Part shown: one piece after another, positions 8,898 to 17,796 of the stretch
Position numbering within the stretch: the stretch's first letter is position 1
How the letters are laid out: each line of letters begins with the position of its first letter
Assembly: GCA_020851435.1 (NCBI GenBank)
Contig: JADZCS010000043.1
Span: 1 to 64,000, forward strand
Length of the DNA stretch: 64,000 nt
From: Gammaproteobacteria bacterium
GTDB taxonomy: Bacteria; Pseudomonadota; Gammaproteobacteria; Steroidobacterales; Steroidobacteraceae
Reading direction: 5' to 3'
The notes under the pieces: model-generated
Database searches by the model: none
What the model saw: the letters and a program-made list of their open reading frames with translations, nothing else
Told to the model about the DNA's origin: nothing
Program-made: the position numbers and the translations under genes

Positions 8898-9802
8898 GTG
8901 AGCCTCCCTCCCTGCCATCTTCCCAGGTAGCCGGTCACCAGCGCGACGGCGACGAAGATGACCATCATGCCGAGGACCTGCGTCAGCGACAGTACCTCGC
9001 CGAGCACGAGCCAGCCAATCAGCGCGGCGATCGCCGGGTTGACGTAGCCGTAGGTGCCGACGACCGCCGGGGACGTGTTGTGCACGAGGTAGGCATAGGC
9101 CGTGTAGGCCAGGCAGGAGCTGGCCAGCGTCAGCCACAGGAATGCGGCGAGGCCGCGCGGCTCGAGCGTCAGCGTCAGTGGCGCGCCGGAGACGGCCGCG
9201 AGCGCCAGCAGCCCGAGGCCGCCGCACAGCATCTGCATGGCGGTGAACATGGTGGTCGGCGTGGTGGGCTCGTCGTTGCGATAGACCATCGTGCCGAGCG
9301 ACCAGCCCAGGCAACCGAGCAGGATCACGAACTGCCAGCGGAAGTCGGGCGGCAGCAGGCCGCCCTTCGGCCACAGGATCAGCGCGACGCCCAGCAGGCC
9401 GACCAGCAGTCCGGCCCTGGCCATGCCCGACAGCGGCACTGCGCGCCTGCCCATGGTGCCGAGCCAGGCGATCCACAGCGCCGGCGTCGCGTTGAGCATG
9501 GCCGCGACGTTCGAGGGCACGTGCTGCATCGCCAGCACGTTGGTGCCGTTGCTCGCGACCACCGTGAACAGGCCCGTCAGGGCCGCCGTGCGCCACTCGC
9601 GCCGGACGCGGGGCGGCCTTTCGCCGCGCCACAGCGCGACGCTGCCGAGGATCACGGCGGCAAGCAGGAAACGGTAGGCGGCCGCGGTCAGTGGCGGCTC
9701 CTCCGCCACCATGACTTTGGTGGCGAGATAGCTCGAGCCCCACACCAGGTAAACCGTGGCGAGCGCCAGTGCGACCTTGAGCCTTCGGCCGCCGTCCGGC
9801 AT
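8894..9802 (-). CDS. EamA/DMT family transporter
   Basis: Multi-TM ORF; VYLVWGSSYLATKVMV signature; start at 9802. Confidence 0.9.
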   Translation of the reverse strand: MPDGGRRLKVALALATVYLVWGSSYLATKVMVAEEPPLTAAAYRFLLAAVILGSVALWRGERPPRVRREWRTAALTGLFTVVASNGTNVLAMQHVPSNVAAMLNATPALWIAWLGTMGRRAVPLSGMARAGLLVGLLGVALILWPKGGLLPPDFRWQFVILLGCLGWSLGTMVYRNDEPTTPTTMFTAMQMLCGGLGLLALAAVSGAPLTLTLEPRGLAAFLWLTLASSCLAYTAYAYLVHNTSPAVVGTYGYVNPAIAALIGWLVLGEVLSLTQVLGMMVIFVAVALVTGYLGRWQGGRLT

Positions 9803-11757
9803 CAGGTCGATCGACGCGGCGTCGCGTGCCGGAACATCCACCAGCCCACGACCGCGAGCCCCGCCACGCCCGCCCACTGTCCGAGGCGCATCGACTGGGC
9901 GACGGCCAGCACGTCGGCGTCCTGGCTGATCACGATCGGCACCGCGATCAGCACGCCGATGATGGCTTCGCCGGCGATCAGGCCTGCGGCGAACAGCAGG
10001 CCGTTCTGCTTGAGCTTCTCCGGGTCCTGGCCCGGATTGCGTCGCGCATGCCAGCGGTCGGCCAGCTCGGCGAGCACGCCGCCCACGAACACCGGGGTGG
10101 ACAGCTCCAGCGGCAGGTACAGGCCGACCGCGACGGCGAGGATCGGCGCGCGCCACTTGCTGCCGCGCGCACGCAAGGCCTGGTCGACCACGATGACGAC
10201 GACGCCCACGGCCGCGCCGAGGGCGATCATGTCCCAGGGCAGGCCGCCGCCGAAGATGCCCTTGGCGACCGAGGCCATGAGGTTGGCCTGCGGCGCCGGC
10301 AGCGCCGTGACGCCCTCGCGTGCCGGGGTGCCGATGCCGTAGGCCTCGAGCAGCAGGTTAAGCACGGGCGCCATCACGGCCGCGCCGGAGATCGCGCCGA
10401 TCGCCAGCATGACCTGCTGGCGCCAGGGCGTGGCGCCCACCAGCTGGCCGGCCTTGAGGTCCTGAAGGTTGTCGCCGGCCACCGAGGCCGCGCTGCAGAT
10501 CACCGCGCCGACCATGATCGCGGCCACGGGGCCGACCGTCGAGCCGCTGCCCAGGAAGCCCAGCAGCACCAGCGACACGAACAGGATGGTCGAGATGGTC
10601 ATGCCGGAGACGGGGTTGTTCGACGAGCCCACCAGGCCCGCCATGTAGCCCGACACCGACGAGAACACGAAGCCGGCGATGACCATGATGATCGCCATCG
10701 CGAAGGCGATGCCGATCGCCGCGCCGCTGGCGACGTTACCGGCGTGCAGCACGGCGTAATACAGCGCGAACAGCGGCAGCACGAACAGCACGATGCCCGT
10801 GAGGACCATCGGCATCGGCAGGTCGCGCTCGGTATGCGGCAGGTCGGCGCGCTTCTCCGAGCCGGCGCCGAGGCCGCTCTTCACGCCCGAGAGCAGCGAC
10901 TTGCGCAGCGTCCACAGCGACCACAGGCCGCCGACGAGCATGGCGCCGACGCCGATGTAGCGGACCTTGGCGTTCCAGATCGCGAAAGCCGCGTCCTCGG
11001 CGGAGGCGCCGGCCAGGCTTGTGACCAGGGCCGGGTCATGGCTGCCGAAGAACGTGCTGTAGACCGGGATGAACACCCACCACGACAGCGCGCCGCCGAC
11101 CAGCATCAGCAGGCCGACGTTCATGCCGACGATGTAGCCCACCGCCAGCAGGGCGGGCGACAGGTTGAAGCCGAAGAACGCGATGGTGCGCTCGCCGAGG
11201 AAGCGCGAGGCCGTGAACGCCTCGGGCGAGAGCTTGAGTCCCGACAGCGCGAACTTGAAGGCGGCGCCGGTCAGGGCCGCGAAGCCGAGCGCCTTCGCGC
11301 CGGGGCCCGGGTTCTCGCCGGCCTTGAGCACTTCGGCGGTGGCCACGCCCTCGGGGAACTGCAGCTTCTGCTCGAGGATCAGCGTGCGCCGCAGCGGCAC
11401 CGACAGCAGCACGCCGAGTACGCCGCCGAGGCCGACGATCGCGAACACCCACCAGTAGTCGAAGCGCTGCCAGTGGCCCAGCAGGATCAGCGCCGGCAGC
11501 GTGAAGATCGCGCCAGAGGCGATCGACGAGCCGGCCGACGCGCCGGTGGCGACGATGTTGTTCTCGAGGATGCTCGAGTTGCCGAGCACCCTGAGCACCG
11601 CCATCGAGATCACCGCCGCCGGGATCGCGGTGGCCACGGTGAGGCCCGCGAACAGGCCGAGGTAGGCGTTGGCCGCCGCCAGGATCATGGTCAGCAGTAT
11701 CGACAGGATGATGGCGCGCAGCGTGAGCTGCGCGGCCTGCGTGTCGGTCGTGACCAT
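9802..11757 (-). CDS. OPT family oligopeptide transporter
   Basis: 651-aa polytopic protein; ANAYLGLFAGLTVATAIPAAVISMAVLR, SLAGDNLQDLKAGQLVGATPWRQQ. Confidence 0.9.
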   Translation of the reverse strand: MVTTDTQAAQLTLRAIILSILLTMILAAANAYLGLFAGLTVATAIPAAVISMAVLRVLGNSSILENNIVATGASAGSSIASGAIFTLPALILLGHWQRFDYWWVFAIVGLGGVLGVLLSVPLRRTLILEQKLQFPEGVATAEVLKAGENPGPGAKALGFAALTGAAFKFALSGLKLSPEAFTASRFLGERTIAFFGFNLSPALLAVGYIVGMNVGLLMLVGGALSWWVFIPVYSTFFGSHDPALVTSLAGASAEDAAFAIWNAKVRYIGVGAMLVGGLWSLWTLRKSLLSGVKSGLGAGSEKRADLPHTERDLPMPMVLTGIVLFVLPLFALYYAVLHAGNVASGAAIGIAFAMAIIMVIAGFVFSSVSGYMAGLVGSSNNPVSGMTISTILFVSLVLLGFLGSGSTVGPVAAIMVGAVICSAASVAGDNLQDLKAGQLVGATPWRQQVMLAIGAISGAAVMAPVLNLLLEAYGIGTPAREGVTALPAPQANLMASVAKGIFGGGLPWDMIALGAAVGVVVIVVDQALRARGSKWRAPILAVAVGLYLPLELSTPVFVGGVLAELADRWHARRNPGQDPEKLKQNGLLFAAGLIAGEAIIGVLIAVPIVISQDADVLAVAQSMRLGQWAGVAGLAVVGWWMFRHATPRRST

Positions 11758-11772
11758 CTCTTGAAGCTCCCT

Positions 11773-13608
11773 TTACCAGCCGCACTGCCGGCCGGCGTTT
11801 TCCTTCTCGAGCCAGGACATCAGCGGCCGGTAGTAGTCGATGATCGCCGAGCCGTCCATCTGGCGCGTGCCGGTGAGCTTTTCCATGGCGTCCTGCCAGG
11901 GCTCGCTCGCGCCCATCGCCAGCATCTGCTGGAAGCGCTTGCCGGCCTCCGCGTTGCCGTAGACCGAGCAGTCGTGCAGTTGCCCCTGGTAGCCGGCGGC
12001 TTCGCACAGCGCCTTGTGGAACTGGAACTGCAGCACATAGGCGAGGAAGTAGCGCGTGTAGGGCGTGTTGCCCGGCACGTGATATTTGGCGCCCGGGTCG
12101 AAGTCTTCCTCGCTGCGCGCGACCGGCGAATCGACGCCCTGGTACTTGCGCCGCAGCTCCCACCAGGCCTTGTTGTAGTCGGCCGGCTTGATCTGCCCGG
12201 AAAAAACGCCCCAGCGCCATTGGTCGATGAGCTTGCCGAAGGGTAGGAACGCGACCTTGTCCAGCGCGCTCTTCATCTGGCCGTTGATCAGCGCCTTGTC
12301 GGCCAGCGCCGGGTCGATCTTGACCGCCGGCACCAGGCCCGCCTGGACCAGGTAGCCGCGCGTCATCGACAGGTTCATGGTGTCGCCGATGGCCTCGTGG
12401 AAGCCATCGTTGGCGCCGGCCTGGAACAGCAGGGGCTGGTCGCGGTAGGAGAGGTAGTAATAGACGTGGCCGAGCTCGTGGTAGATCGTGTAGAGATCTT
12501 CCTCGGCCGGCTGGATGCACATCTTGATGCGCACGTCGTCCCGGGTATCCATGCTCCAGGCGCTGGCGTGGCAGACCACGTCGCGGTCCTGCGGGCGCTT
12601 GAGCATCGAACGCGTCCAGAAGCTGTCGGGCAGCTTCGGGAAGCCCATCGAGGTGTAGAACGCCTCGGCCGAGCGCGTCATCTTCACGGCGTCGTAGCCC
12701 TGCTTCTTCAGCGAGCTGCCCACGTCGAGGTCGGAGACGCCCGGATAAGGTTCCAGCAGGTCGTAGACGTTGTTCCACTGCTGGGCCCACATGTTCCCGA
12801 GCAGGTGCGCGGGAATGGGCTTGCCGTCGGGCACGCGGGCCTTGCCGTACGTCGCCTGCAGCCTGCCGCGCGCGTAGCAGTGCAGCTGGTCGTAGAGCGG
12901 CTTGACCTGGCCCCACAGGCGCTCGGTCTCGTCGGAGAATTGCGCGGGCGTCATGTCGTAGCCGGAGCGCCACATTTCGCCCAAGTCCTTGAAGCCCAGC
13001 GACTGCGAGCCCTCGTTGGCCAGTTCGACGAAGCGCTCGTAGTCCTTGCGCATGGGTCGCGAGATCGTGTGCCAGCCCTGCCAGGCTTCCAGCTGCGCGT
13101 CGTAGTCGCGGCTCCTGACCAGCACGTCGGAGAGCTCGTCGAGGTTGCGGCAGCTCTCCGGTCCCTTCGGGCAGTACTTGCCGGCACCGTAGCTGGCGTC
13201 CATGCGCGCCGCGATCTCGGTGAGTTCGGCGCGCTTCTTCGCGTCGTCCGGGGCGGGCGCGGCCACGCCGAGCTTGAGCAGCAGCATCGATCGCGCGGCC
13301 GACGGCGACACCTGCTGGCCTTCGTAGCGGGCCGCGTCCTTGACCGCCTTCGTGTAGTACTCGAGGTAGCGGTCCTGGGCCCGCGCCGCCAGCAACTGGG
13401 TGTCGTCGTTGATGTAGGTCTGCTGCGTCCAGACCGCCGCGTTGACCTCCTTCCAGTGCGCGAGCAGCTCGGTGTTGCTGCGCGCCACGAACTGGTCGGC
13501 GCTTTCAGCCGGTGCAGCGCCCGGCTTCTTTCCGCAGCCTGCCAGCATCGAGGCGCCGAGCACGGCCACGACGGCAACCGTCAGCGGCCTGCGTGTGCGA
13601 ATGCCCAT
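11773..13608 (-). CDS. M2 family (ACE-like) peptidyl-dipeptidase lipoprotein
   Basis: HELGH zinc motif in [20 protein letters not shown]; lipobox SMLAGC. Confidence 0.92.
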
Positions 13609-13624
13609 GTCGCGTACCTCCCGC

Positions 13625-14989
13625 TCAGGCCTTCCGGGCCGACTCCGCGCCATGCGTCCAGCGCATCAGCGTGCCTGACACGGTCCACAGCACGAAGGAG
13701 AACACGAACAGCACGATGGCGATGCCGCCGAAGATCGACAACTCGCCCAGCGACTCGGCGTAGGAGCCGATGATGCCCGCGAGCCAGTTGGCGACGAAGT
13801 TGATCATGAACCAGACGCCCATCATCAGCGACGCGAGCCGCAGCGGCGCGAGCTTGGTGACCATCGACAGGCCGACCGGCGAGATGCACAGCTCGCCCGT
13901 GGTGTGGAAGAAGTAGGCGATCACCAGCCAGATCATGCTGGCCTTGCCGGCTGCCTGCTGGTCGAACACCGCGGCGATCATGGCCAGGAAGCCGATGCCC
14001 GTCAGGAACAGGCCGAGCACCATCTTGTGCGGCGTCGGCGGGTTGCGGCCGGACTCGCCGAGCTTGCTCCACGCCAGCGAGAACAGCGGCGCCAGCAGCA
14101 CGATGAACAGCGGGTTCAGCGACTGGAACCAGCCCGCCGGCACCTCGAAGCCGCCGAGCATGCGGTCGGTCTTCTCGGCGGCGTAGATGTTCATGAGGCC
14201 GCCGGCCTGCTCGAACGCCGCCCAGAACAGCACCACGAACACGAACAGCATGAAGATGACCTTGAGGCGGTCCACTTCGTCGTGCGTCAGCGGTGCGTGC
14301 TTGCCGCCGCTCTGCGCGAGCGAGCGGGTTGCGGCCGGCACCGTGCCGATGTCGCCGAGGTAGCGGCGGGCCAGCAGCAGCTGGATGATGACCGACAGGA
14401 TCATGCCGATGCCGGCGGCCATGTAGCCGTAACGCCAGCCCCAGGCCGGGTCCTCGCCGAGCGTCGAGCAGATGAACGGCGCGATGAAGGCGCCGGCGTT
14501 GATGCCCATGTAGAAGATCGTGAAGGCGCCGTCGCGGCGGGAGTCGCCTTCGGGATACAGGTCGCCGACCATGGTCGAGATGTTGGGCTTGAAGAAGCCG
14601 TTGCCGATCACCAGCAGCACGAGGCCCACGTAGAACAGCGTGAGGTTGCCGGGGATCGCCGAGGCCAGCGTGAACTGCCCCGCGGCCATCACCAGGCCGC
14701 CGATGATCACGCACTTGCGCTGCCCGAGGTAGTTGTCGGCCAGCCAGCCGCCGATCAGGGGCGTGAAGTAGACGAAGCCCGTGAACAGGCCGTACAGCTG
14801 CAGCGCCTCGGCCTGTGTCCAGCCGAAGCCCGGGTTGGCCGCCTCGGTGCCCGCAATGACCGACAGCACCAGCAGCGCGCGCATGCCGTAGTAGCTGAAT
14901 CGCTCCCACATTTCGGTGGCGAACAGCAGGAACAGGCCCTTCGGGTGGCCTAGGAAGGTGCCCTGGGGCACTTGGACGTCGCTGGTCAT
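13625..14989 (-). CDS. POT/PTR family peptide MFS transporter
   Basis: FATEMWERFSYYGMRALLVL signature; GGWLADNYLGQRK. Confidence 0.92.
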   Translation of the reverse strand: MTSDVQVPQGTFLGHPKGLFLLFATEMWERFSYYGMRALLVLSVIAGTEAANPGFGWTQAEALQLYGLFTGFVYFTPLIGGWLADNYLGQRKCVIIGGLVMAAGQFTLASAIPGNLTLFYVGLVLLVIGNGFFKPNISTMVGDLYPEGDSRRDGAFTIFYMGINAGAFIAPFICSTLGEDPAWGWRYGYMAAGIGMILSVIIQLLLARRYLGDIGTVPAATRSLAQSGGKHAPLTHDEVDRLKVIFMLFVFVVLFWAAFEQAGGLMNIYAAEKTDRMLGGFEVPAGWFQSLNPLFIVLLAPLFSLAWSKLGESGRNPPTPHKMVLGLFLTGIGFLAMIAAVFDQQAAGKASMIWLVIAYFFHTTGELCISPVGLSMVTKLAPLRLASLMMGVWFMINFVANWLAGIIGSYAESLGELSIFGGIAIVLFVFSFVLWTVSGTLMRWTHGAESARKA

Positions 14990-15121
14990 TGGGGATCCCT
15001 GTTTCAGGCGGCGACGGGGGTGCTTCCCCGCGCCAAGATGGCAGGAGTCTCCACGATTTTGCATCGCGGCGGCAAGGAGTTATGCGATGGGCGCCCGCCG
15101 CGGGGCGGTGCCCCGATGGGC

Positions 15122-16204
15122 TTACCAGCCCCTGCCGATGCCCAGTTTCATGTTCACGATCGAAAAGTACAGCAGCACCAGGTTTTCCACCGGCACATCG
15201 TCCATCAAGCCGCTCTGCACGGTGTTCGGTGCGCCCGGCTCCGGATCACCCGACATATTGTCCTTGATCATCTTCTTGGTGCCCTTCTCGAAGCCCTTCT
15301 TGGCCACCTTCGCGACGACGTCGTTAGCCTCGTCGACGAAGCGCTTCTCGACGTCGGTGTCGATCACCTTGGTCCACACGTTGAAGGGGACGGGCAGCTT
15401 CTTGAAGATCTTCTTGATCCATTCCCCGCCGAACAGGGCCTGCGCGGCGCCGGAACTCGCGATCTTGAGTCCGCCCGTGCTCAGCGCCTTGCCGAAGCTG
15501 TCTCCGGCGGCCAGCGAGGTGCCCGCTTCAAGGGTACCCTGGGCGACGATGAGCACGTACTCCCCTGCCGTGGTGAGTTTCGCACCGCTGATCTTGAAGG
15601 CGCCAAGGAACATGCTGCCGGCGCCGTAGAGCGCCGCGGCGCCGACGTTGCCGGTGTCCTGGTACTTGCCGAAGCCCTTCATGGCCGAGCTGCCGGCCAG
15701 CAGGCCGGAGGCGGCGCCGCCGGTCGCGATCGTCGAACCGATCGCCACCACGTCGGCCGAGGTGTCGCGGATGAACCGGCTCGCATCGATCAGGCCGTCG
15801 TAGTCCTTGACCGACTTCTCCATCGCCTGCAGGTTCTGCTGCTGGACGTCCTTGAGTATGTTGGTGAACTGGGCACGCTGGGCCGCAGTGCGCTTGACCT
15901 TGTACTCGATGTCGAACGCGATGTCGTACATCGACTGGGCCGCGCGCTGCGTGTAGCTGACCATGTCGGCACTGGTCGCGCGCCTGGCGAAGTCCCGGAC
16001 TGTGTCCCACTCGACCTCGAGCGTCACGACGTCAGGCATGCTCCAGCTGAACGGGTTGCTCCACGAGGACTGTGACAGGGTCACCTTGTCGTAGAGATCT
16101 ATCTGGTAGTAGGTCTGCCAGTACGACATGACCAGGCGCTCGATCACGTCCCAGTCGACGGCGTACTCCTGGCCGCTGCGTGTCGTCACAAACTGATAGG
16201 CCAT
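15122..16204 (-). CDS. Hypothetical protein, 360 aa, no family recognised
   Basis: Complete ORF with ATG, same strand as flanking POT genes; long Gly/Ala-rich amphipathic/hydrophobic central part (IGSTIATGGAASGLLAGSSAMKGFGKYQDTGNVGAAALYGAGSMFLGAF). Confidence 0.8.
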   Translation of the reverse strand: MAYQFVTTRSGQEYAVDWDVIERLVMSYWQTYYQIDLYDKVTLSQSSWSNPFSWSMPDVVTLEVEWDTVRDFARRATSADMVSYTQRAAQSMYDIAFDIEYKVKRTAAQRAQFTNILKDVQQQNLQAMEKSVKDYDGLIDASRFIRDTSADVVAIGSTIATGGAASGLLAGSSAMKGFGKYQDTGNVGAAALYGAGSMFLGAFKISGAKLTTAGEYVLIVAQGTLEAGTSLAAGDSFGKALSTGGLKIASSGAAQALFGGEWIKKIFKKLPVPFNVWTKVIDTDVEKRFVDEANDVVAKVAKKGFEKGTKKMIKDNMSGDPEPGAPNTVQSGLMDDVPVENLVLLYFSIVNMKLGIGRGW

Positions 16205-16332
16205 GGCAGGGTGCTCCGGGTAGTTGCGCGTCCTGTGCGTTGAAGCACTCTCACGGGACCTTTCCTAGTCTCGCGTCTGTCGCGGTGCGGCGGCAAGGGG
16301 GCATCGTACCCCTTATCGGCTACGCGGCCCTG

Positions 16333-17796
16333 TCAGCGCACGCCGCCCATCAGGCGCGTCAGCGGCTTCGCTAGCAGCAGCAGGATCACGCCGACGATCA
16401 CGCCGTACCAGGTGATGCCCATGAAGCGGGCTGGCATGGCGGCGACGTCGCCCGCGTCGAAGGTGCCGGCGATCAGGCCGGCCAGCAGCTTGCCCAGCGA
16501 GCTCGCCAGGAACCACACGCCCATCATCTGGCCGACGAAGCGCGCCGGCGCCAGCTTGGTCACCGTCGACAGGCCCACCGGGCTCAGGCACAGCTCGCCG
16601 AACACGTGGATCATGTAGGTCAGCACCAGCCAGTGCACCGGCGATTCGAAGCCGGCGGCGACGATGCTGGCGGCATGCACCATGAACAGGAAGCCGCAGC
16701 CCATCAGGATCAGCGCCAGGCCGAACTTCACGGGCACGGTCGGGTCCAGCATGCGGCGGGCCAGGGCGACCCAGAGCATGGAGAACAGCGGCGCGAACAC
16801 GATCACGAACAGCGGCGGCACGCTCTGCAGCCAGCCGGCCGGGATCTCGAAGCCGCCGATGGTCCGGTCCACGAAGCGCTTCGCGAACAGGTTCAGCGAC
16901 GAGCCGCCCTGCTCGTAGCCGGCCCAGAACAGCGCGCAGGCGACGAACATGCTGAGCAGCACGACGACGCGGCGCCGCTCCACCGGCTCGAGGCCCGCGA
17001 AGAAGAACAGGTAGATGAAGTAACCAGCGGCCATGCTCACCAGCACCCAGGCCGCCCGCTTGGCGAGCGAGGCCGGATCGACGGGGATGACGCCGGTCAG
17101 GCACAGCCCGAGGCCCAGCAGGACGACGGCAAGGCCGATGCCGAGCTTGCGCCAGTCGCCGGCCAGGCCGCTGCCACCGTCGCTTCGGATGGGCGCCGCG
17201 CCGGCGCCCGCCAGGCGCTCGCGGCTGAGCCAGAACTGCAGCGTGCCCACCGGGATGGCCACCGCCGCGGCCAGGAAGCCCCAGCGCCAGCCGTACTGTT
17301 CAGCCAGGAAACCGGCGATCAGCGGCCCGATGAAGGCGCCGAGGTTGATGCCCATGTAGAAGATCGTGAAGCCCGCGTCGCGCCGCGCGCCGCCCTCGGG
17401 GTAAAGCTGTGCGACCAGCGTCGACACGTTGGGCTTCAGCAGCCCGACGCCGAGGATGATGGTGATGAGGCCGGCGAAGAACAGCGCCGGCGGGCCGGGG
17501 ATCACGAGCAGGGCGTTGCCGAGGGTCATGAGCATGCCGCCCGCCACCACGGCGCGCTGCGCGCCCACCAGCCGGTCGGCGATCCAGCCGCCCGGCAGGG
17601 CCGCCATGAAGGTCGCGGCCGTGTAGAGGCCGTAGATCGCGGTGGCGGTCTTGTCGTCGAGGCCGAAGCCGCCGGACTGCACCGAGTCGACGAGGAACAG
17701 CACCAGCAGGGCGCGCATTCCGTAGAACGTGAAGCGCTCCCACATCTCGGTGAAGAACAGCGTCGACAGCGCGCGCGGGTGTCCGAAGAAGCTCAC
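16333..17796 (-). CDS. POT/PTR family peptide MFS transporter (second paralogue)
   Basis: FTEMWERFTFYGMRALLVLFLVDS; GGWIADRLVGAQRAV. Confidence 0.92.
   Translation of the reverse strand: MSFFGHPRALSTLFFTEMWERFTFYGMRALLVLFLVDSVQSGGFGLDDKTATAIYGLYTAATFMAALPGGWIADRLVGAQRAVVAGGMLMTLGNALLVIPGPPALFFAGLITIILGVGLLKPNVSTLVAQLYPEGGARRDAGFTIFYMGINLGAFIGPLIAGFLAEQYGWRWGFLAAAVAIPVGTLQFWLSRERLAGAGAAPIRSDGGSGLAGDWRKLGIGLAVVLLGLGLCLTGVIPVDPASLAKRAAWVLVSMAAGYFIYLFFFAGLEPVERRRVVVLLSMFVACALFWAGYEQGGSSLNLFAKRFVDRTIGGFEIPAGWLQSVPPLFVIVFAPLFSMLWVALARRMLDPTVPVKFGLALILMGCGFLFMVHAASIVAAGFESPVHWLVLTYMIHVFGELCLSPVGLSTVTKLAPARFVGQMMGVWFLASSLGKLLAGLIAGTFDAGDVAAMPARFMGITWYGVIVGVILLLLAKPLTRLMGGVR

What the first reader, a model, noticed from the sequence alone, without database searches (positions are those of the whole stretch)
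15122..16204. Unassigned 360-aa protein between two POT peptide transporters
Sequence shows a complete, non-repetitive ORF on the same strand as its neighbours, without a signal peptide or a motif I recognise. The N-terminus is Tyr/Trp-rich (MSYWQTYYQIDLYDK). A helical, Lys/Gln-rich stretch follows, then about 150 residues of Gly/Ala-rich weakly hydrophobic sequence with glycine-zipper-like spacing, and a charged C-terminus. Inference: the layout could suit a membrane-inserting or secreted effector-like protein, or a peptide-handling partner of the transporters. This is the best single candidate for an undescribed gene here.
Basis: partly seen in the sequence, partly recalled or inferred. Interest (0 to 1): 0.7.

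Follow-up and report, generated by a model that had tools for sequence, protein, structure and literature searches.

The report
Undescribed protein linked to type VI secretion
The unassigned gene is real, but it has nothing to do with the peptide transporters beside it: its distant relatives track with, and in some bacteria lie inside, the gene cluster for a bacterial harpoon (type VI secretion system), so it probably encodes an undescribed cargo protein of that weapon.

Summary
The 360-aa ORF is real. It lies on the minus strand, with its ATG at 16204. Full-length relatives at 52% and ~20-25% identity share its frame and its start. No Pfam, NCBIfam, PHROGs, PADLOC or PDB family matches it. 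It belongs to an undescribed, rare family of about 330-375 aa. The family hallmarks are an N-terminal DxxGxxW/Y motif, a long helix, RDxS, a Gly/Ala hairpin with GG, then [K/T]YxDTG, and a variable C-terminus.

The peptide-transport link is refuted: no relative examined lies near POT or OPT genes. [quoted passage not shown] All 10 carrier genomes tested have the T6SS sheath TssC, against 5 of 76 non-carriers in the same groups (Fisher p = 8e-10; 6 of 6 carrier lineages). Four Rhodobacterales plasmids carry diverged relatives inside T6SS operons, with the start codon overlapping the tssH/clpV stop by 4 bases. The family mostly diverges faster than core T6SS genes.

Best reading: a stand-alone T6SS cargo (effector) with a membrane-inserting hairpin. 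The T6SS link is well supported; the effector role is likely; the mechanism is inferred. No immunity gene is recognisable, so the target may not be bacterial, or the protein is a non-secreted T6SS accessory.

The parts
15122..16204 (-). whole ORF, 360 aa, ATG at 16204, stop at 15122-15124; member of an undescribed T6SS-linked family
   Evidence: relatives; GC 0.628 and GC3 0.903, lowest of the seven local genes compared
16214..16217 (-). GGAG, Shine-Dalgarno-like, 9 nt before the ATG
   Evidence: sequence
16085..16204 (-). residues 1-40: predicted beta-hairpin plus helix carrying the family N-terminal motif (SGQEYAVD here, DxxGxxW elsewhere); candidate loading part
   Evidence: alignment; AlphaFold2 pLDDT about 73-90 in the 1-160 model
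15740..16009 (-). residues 66-155: two predicted helices, the second very long (92-155)
   Evidence: confidence falls after about residue 125
15758..15769 (-). residues 146-149, RDTS: R and D invariant in the 8 representatives, S in 7
15590..15751 (-). residues 152-205: Gly/Ala-rich weakly hydrophobic hairpin-like region, the family core
   Evidence: best conserved region (141-205, mean pairwise identity 32%); hydropathy peaks 1.55 and 1.33
15713..15721 (-). residues 162-164, GGA: the second G is invariant in the 8 representatives
15650..15667 (-). residues 180-185, KYQDTG: family signature after the first hydrophobic arm
15125..15409 (-). residues 266-360: variable C-terminal part
   Evidence: mean pairwise identity 13%, 32% gaps

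Best explanation
The ORF encodes a stand-alone cargo protein (effector) of the type VI secretion system that this genome carries on another contig. Inferred mechanism: it is made in the cytoplasm without a signal peptide; the N-terminal part docks it to the Hcp/VgrG spike; after delivery the small-residue hairpin around RDxS-GG-YxDTG inserts into the target membrane and either permeabilises it or carries the variable C-terminal part across. Shown: the gene and family are real, genomic linkage to T6SS, relatives inside T6SS operons, fast divergence. Inferred: secretion, membrane insertion, toxicity, and the target.
For: 10 of 10 carriers have TssC against 5 of 76 non-carriers; 6 of 6 carrier lineages. 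Broad T6SS gene sets in the carriers, including the window's genome. Diverged relatives overlap the tssH stop by 4 bases inside T6SS operons on four plasmids of Tritonibacter and Rhodovulum; profile score 66.8 bits against at most 6.0 for shuffled sequence. Identity between carriers is usually far below that of core T6SS proteins, e.g. G891-G1345 25% against 64-89%. The C-terminus is the most variable part and the small-residue hairpin the most conserved. No signal peptide is evident. Precedents: a glycine zipper of the T6SS effector Tde1 permeabilises target membranes (PMC10240207); orphan effectors with no T6SS neighbour or marker domain are an acknowledged class (PMC7046647).
Against: No gene that looks like an immunity partner lies beside any member, which is unusual for an antibacterial effector. 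No known T6SS marker or toxin domain. VgrG, Hcp or PAAR are not adjacent to the window gene. Hydropathy peaks are modest. No structure or fold match. The window-G393 pair (51% against 41-76% for core genes) and the in-operon Tritonibacter-Rhodovulum pair (69% against 59-91%) do not diverge faster than the core. Nothing here shows secretion.
Confidence: 0.58

Rival explanations
1. A non-secreted accessory of certain T6SS machines, for example a membrane-anchored assembly, regulatory or chaperone-like factor, encoded at the end of the tssH operon in some lineages and moved elsewhere in others.
For: Translational overlap with tssH; presence in every carrier with T6SS; no immunity gene; the in-operon copies diverge no faster than core genes.
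Against: T6SS-positive genomes of the same type without a detected member (G1086); very fast divergence relative to the core in other pairs; rare among Proteobacteria at large, where T6SS is common.
Confidence: 0.27
2. A passenger gene that shares habitat or mobile elements with T6SS but has no functional tie to it.
For: Most copies are far from the T6SS genes and alone; T6SS and this gene are both patchy.
Against: 6 of 6 lineages against a base rate of 6.6%; conserved 4-base overlap with tssH in two genera; retained in one place in four Cypionkella/Pseudorhodobacter genomes, all T6SS-positive.
Confidence: 0.1
3. A peptide-handling partner of the flanking POT transporters.
For: It lies between two POT genes on one strand, 57 b from one and 128 b from the other.
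Against: No relative examined lies near such transporters. The gene has the lowest GC and GC3 of the seven local genes compared (0.628 and 0.903 against 0.66-0.71 and 0.925-0.963) and was not found in the other 216 genomes of the family searched.
Confidence: 0.02

Closest known systems
Tme family of membrane-disrupting T6SS effectors (Fridman et al. 2020, PMC7046647)
   Same: Found by association with T6SS genomes rather than by neighbours; about 310 aa or more; no known toxin or marker domain; hydrophobic segment slightly below or at TM threshold
   Different: Tme has a C-terminal DxxK-TMH-D motif and a downstream Tmi immunity gene; here the conserved part is central (RDxS-GG-YxDTG) and no immunity gene is seen. 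No relation by sequence was tested directly
Tde1 (Agrobacterium T6SS DNase effector with glycine zippers, PMC10240207)
   Same: Small-residue GxxxG repeats proposed here to insert into the target membrane; variable C-terminal part
   Different: Tde1 has an N-terminal zipper, a C-terminal Ntox15 DNase, the adaptor Tap1 and immunity Tdi1; none of these was recognised here
Tse4 (Pseudomonas aeruginosa pore-forming T6SS effector)
   Same: Glycine-zipper-like region, membrane action proposed (cited in PMC10240207)
   Different: Only known to me from the literature; has an immunity partner; no sequence comparison was run here
Core and accessory T6SS genes of tssH operons
   Same: Four plasmid relatives are the last gene of the tssB-tssH operon
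   Different: No Pfam, NCBIfam or PDB match to any T6SS component

Membership tests
T6SS effectors (general) | Found in T6SS-positive genomes | tested here: met
   10/10 carriers against 5/76 non-carriers
T6SS effectors (general) | Encoded within or next to T6SS genes | tested here: inconclusive
   Met for four plasmid relatives; not met for the window gene and the other chromosomal copies
T6SS effectors (general) | T6SS-dependent secretion | not testable with these tools
   needs a secretion assay
T6SS effectors (general) | Known marker (MIX, FIX), adaptor neighbour or toxin domain | tested here: not met
   No significant Pfam, NCBIfam or PADLOC match; no adaptor gene recognised beside it. 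Not required of orphan effectors
Antibacterial T6SS effector | Adjacent immunity gene | tested here: not met
   No small same-strand partner in the window or at the other loci read
Tme effectors | C-terminal DxxK motif followed by a TM helix and an aspartate, with a Tmi partner | tested here: not met
   The C-terminus is the least conserved part and no partner gene is present
T6SS core component | Match to a known Tss/Tag family and presence in all T6SS of the type | tested here: not met
   No family match; no member found in T6SS-positive G1086
Peptide-transport partner | Conserved neighbourhood with POT/OPT | tested here: not met

The most novel reading that the evidence does not exclude
A new class of T6SS cargo that needs no immunity protein, spread across Alpha- and Gammaproteobacteria, with a conserved delivery and membrane-insertion module (DxxGxxW, RDxS-GG-YxDTG) and a changing C-terminal part, perhaps aimed at eukaryotic grazers rather than bacteria.
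Probability: 0.2. Interest if true: 0.75.

Novelty: new member of a known kind. Interest (0 to 1): 0.5.

Why it matters
It shows that an orphan gene's immediate neighbours can mislead, while genome-wide co-occurrence points to its machine. If confirmed, it adds an undescribed T6SS cargo or accessory family, absent from the curated libraries searched, with a usable sequence signature and members in named cultured bacteria (Rhodovulum sulfidophilum DSM 1374, Tritonibacter scottomollicae, Cypionkella aquatica) in which it can be tested directly.

Tried and rejected
Curated libraries and PDB sequences: nothing. Viral contigs, phages and plasmids with the window protein: nothing. A first degenerate DNA pattern was mis-spaced; testing it on the window itself showed this and it was replaced. 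Of the 16 genome-contig hits to the corrected pattern, 5 encode members (one is the G393 contig already known) and the other 11 are chance. Most weak hits are chance, some of them GroES-like proteins; only those in G393, G256 and G891 proved real. AlphaFold2: full length poor (pLDDT 42); residues 1-160 fair (71), but no Foldseek match at E <= 0.001 in PDB or BFVD; the weak top hits (ribonucleotide reductase, NrdR) were not taken as meaningful. Contamination of the MAG (6.4%) as the cause of the T6SS link: the T6SS contig has GC 0.67-0.69 against 0.69 for the window, and the link also holds in other, cleaner genomes. No paralogue of the family was found in the T6SS regions read.

Full report
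The observation. The ORF at 15122-16204 is on the minus strand, 360 aa, between two POT (PTR2) genes on the same strand. A GGAG lies 9 nt before its ATG. Its GC (0.628) and GC3 (0.903) are the lowest of the seven local genes compared. The long plus-strand ORF over the same bases is an antisense frame of a 69% GC genome. The quoted 'N-terminus' MSYWQTYY begins at residue 26; the conserved start is MAYQ.

A family, but an undescribed one. No family in Pfam, NCBIfam, PHROGs or PADLOC and no PDB sequence matches significantly. The gene was not found in the other 216 genomes of its family that were searched. A search of 396 genomes of the order found a 52%-identical full-length relative (L002; its contig has the same length, 14366, as a record titled 'Gammaproteobacteria bacterium isolate 13_May_SF_Bin53' that carries the same protein) and a distant one in G256. 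The G256 gene is split over two contig ends that overlap by about 127 bases and reads as 374 aa. A profile search then gave a member in G891, later seen to group with Rhodobacterales-type genomes. A degenerate DNA pattern for RD[ST]-x13-GGA-x16-[YFW]x[DE][ST]G, checked on the window first, found four more, in three Cypionkella genomes and one Pseudorhodobacter. A last profile search added G1329 and G1345. The alignment shows the hallmarks: an N-terminal DxxGxxW/Y, RDxS, GG and [K/T]YxDTG. The region of residues 141-205 is the best conserved (mean pairwise identity 32%) and the C-terminus the least (13%).

The neighbours mislead. Relatives sit beside quite different genes: a polyphosphate:AMP phosphotransferase-like gene, a DUF945-like gene, guaA, pmbA (Pfam), a murein transglycosylase and an SMC-like gene. 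None lies near POT or OPT genes. Gene names without a Pfam check here are my own reading of the sequence.

The T6SS link. All six carriers found by genome search have the T6SS sheath protein TssC (PF05943, E <= 1e-121). The four Cypionkella/Pseudorhodobacter carriers also have it, while only 5 of 76 non-carriers from the same two groups do (1 of 38 in the gamma order, a weak match; 4 of 38 in the group of G891). Fisher p = 8e-10. Counted by lineage, 6 of 6 at a base rate of 6.6% gives about 8e-8, or 1e-5 at the upper confidence limit. tblastn shows broad T6SS gene sets in the carriers. In the window's own genome the cluster is on contig C246: VgrG, PAAR, TagH, TssJ-M, TagF, TssA-C, Hcp, TagJ, TssE-G and ClpV. 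Its GC (0.67-0.69) matches the window.

Relatives inside the T6SS operon. tblastn of the G1345 protein against plasmids gave one weak hit (E = 0.5) that proved decisive. It is a 'hypothetical protein' in a Tritonibacter plasmid whose start overlaps the tssH stop by 4 bases in a tagH-tssA-B-C-hcp-tssE-F-G-H operon. The family profile, built without it, scores it 66.8 bits against at most 6.0 for shuffled versions of it. Three Rhodovulum plasmids carry it in the same place. In Cypionkella, Pseudorhodobacter and G1345 the corresponding T6SS clusters lack it after tssH while the gene is elsewhere in the genome. Four T6SS-positive control genomes have no member in the T6SS regions fetched. Elsewhere in three of them only a single-sequence search was made, so a very diverged copy could be missed.

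Rate of change. Between G891 and G1345 the core T6SS proteins are 64-89% identical but the family members only 25%; between the window genome and G256 41-75% against 22%. The window-G393 pair is closer (51% against 41-76%), and so is the in-operon Tritonibacter-Rhodovulum pair (69% against 59-91%). On balance this fits cargo better than a fixed part of the machine, but not in every pair.

How it probably works (inference). No signal peptide is evident. AlphaFold2 gives a fair model only for the first 125 residues or so: beta-hairpin, helix, then further helices, with no fold match. The segments after RDxS are weakly hydrophobic and rich in small residues (peaks about 1.3-2.1 across the family), as expected of a protein that inserts into a membrane only on delivery. 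A glycine zipper in a T6SS effector has been shown to permeabilise target membranes (PMC10240207), and orphan effectors without marker domains or T6SS neighbours are an acknowledged class (PMC7046647). I therefore favour a stand-alone T6SS effector with a membrane-inserting middle and a variable C-terminus. The lack of an immunity gene is the main objection. It would fit a non-bacterial target or a non-secreted accessory.

Verdict. T6SS linkage: about 0.9. Effector: about 0.6. The specific membrane mechanism: about 0.4. Peptide-transport partner: about 0.02.

Noticed in passing
L090:1119-14050 (G000:C246:21119-34050): A 3676-aa ORF whose start resembles a filamentous-haemagglutinin (two-partner secretion) protein lies directly upstream of tssA in the window genome's T6SS cluster, preceded by a 622-aa ORF. 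A possible two-partner secretion pair built into a T6SS locus.
   Followed up: no
L037:1-678 (G393:C104): Downstream of the closest relative, beyond a run of N, an ORF of 226 aa or more that runs off the contig also has Gly/Ala-rich weakly hydrophobic stretches; no confident Pfam match.
   Followed up: partly
L091:10187-11605 (G000:C206), L104:3863-5290, L103:2122-3552: The three gamma carriers each have a second, solitary TssC-like protein of about 475 aa that begins with a TssB-like stretch; in G393 and G256 it lies next to VgrG genes.
   Followed up: partly
L062, L064, L066, L073: In Cypionkella and Pseudorhodobacter the family member is divergently placed from pmbA (TldE-like) with conserved synteny.
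   Followed up: partly
L116-L119 and L105, L110, L112: DUF1036 genes and opposite-strand genes with weak peptidoglycan-binding or SLT matches, one reading as caspase-like (by eye), recur beside tssH in these Rhodobacterales T6SS clusters.
   Followed up: partly
L093:5577-6623 (G256:C281): A lipase-like ORF on the opposite strand (named by eye) just before tssA in the T6SS cluster; a candidate for a separate effector.
   Followed up: no
window 9802-17796: OPT transporter, M2 (ACE-like) peptidase and two POT transporters form a peptide-use cluster that the T6SS-linked gene interrupts (Pfam).
   Followed up: partly
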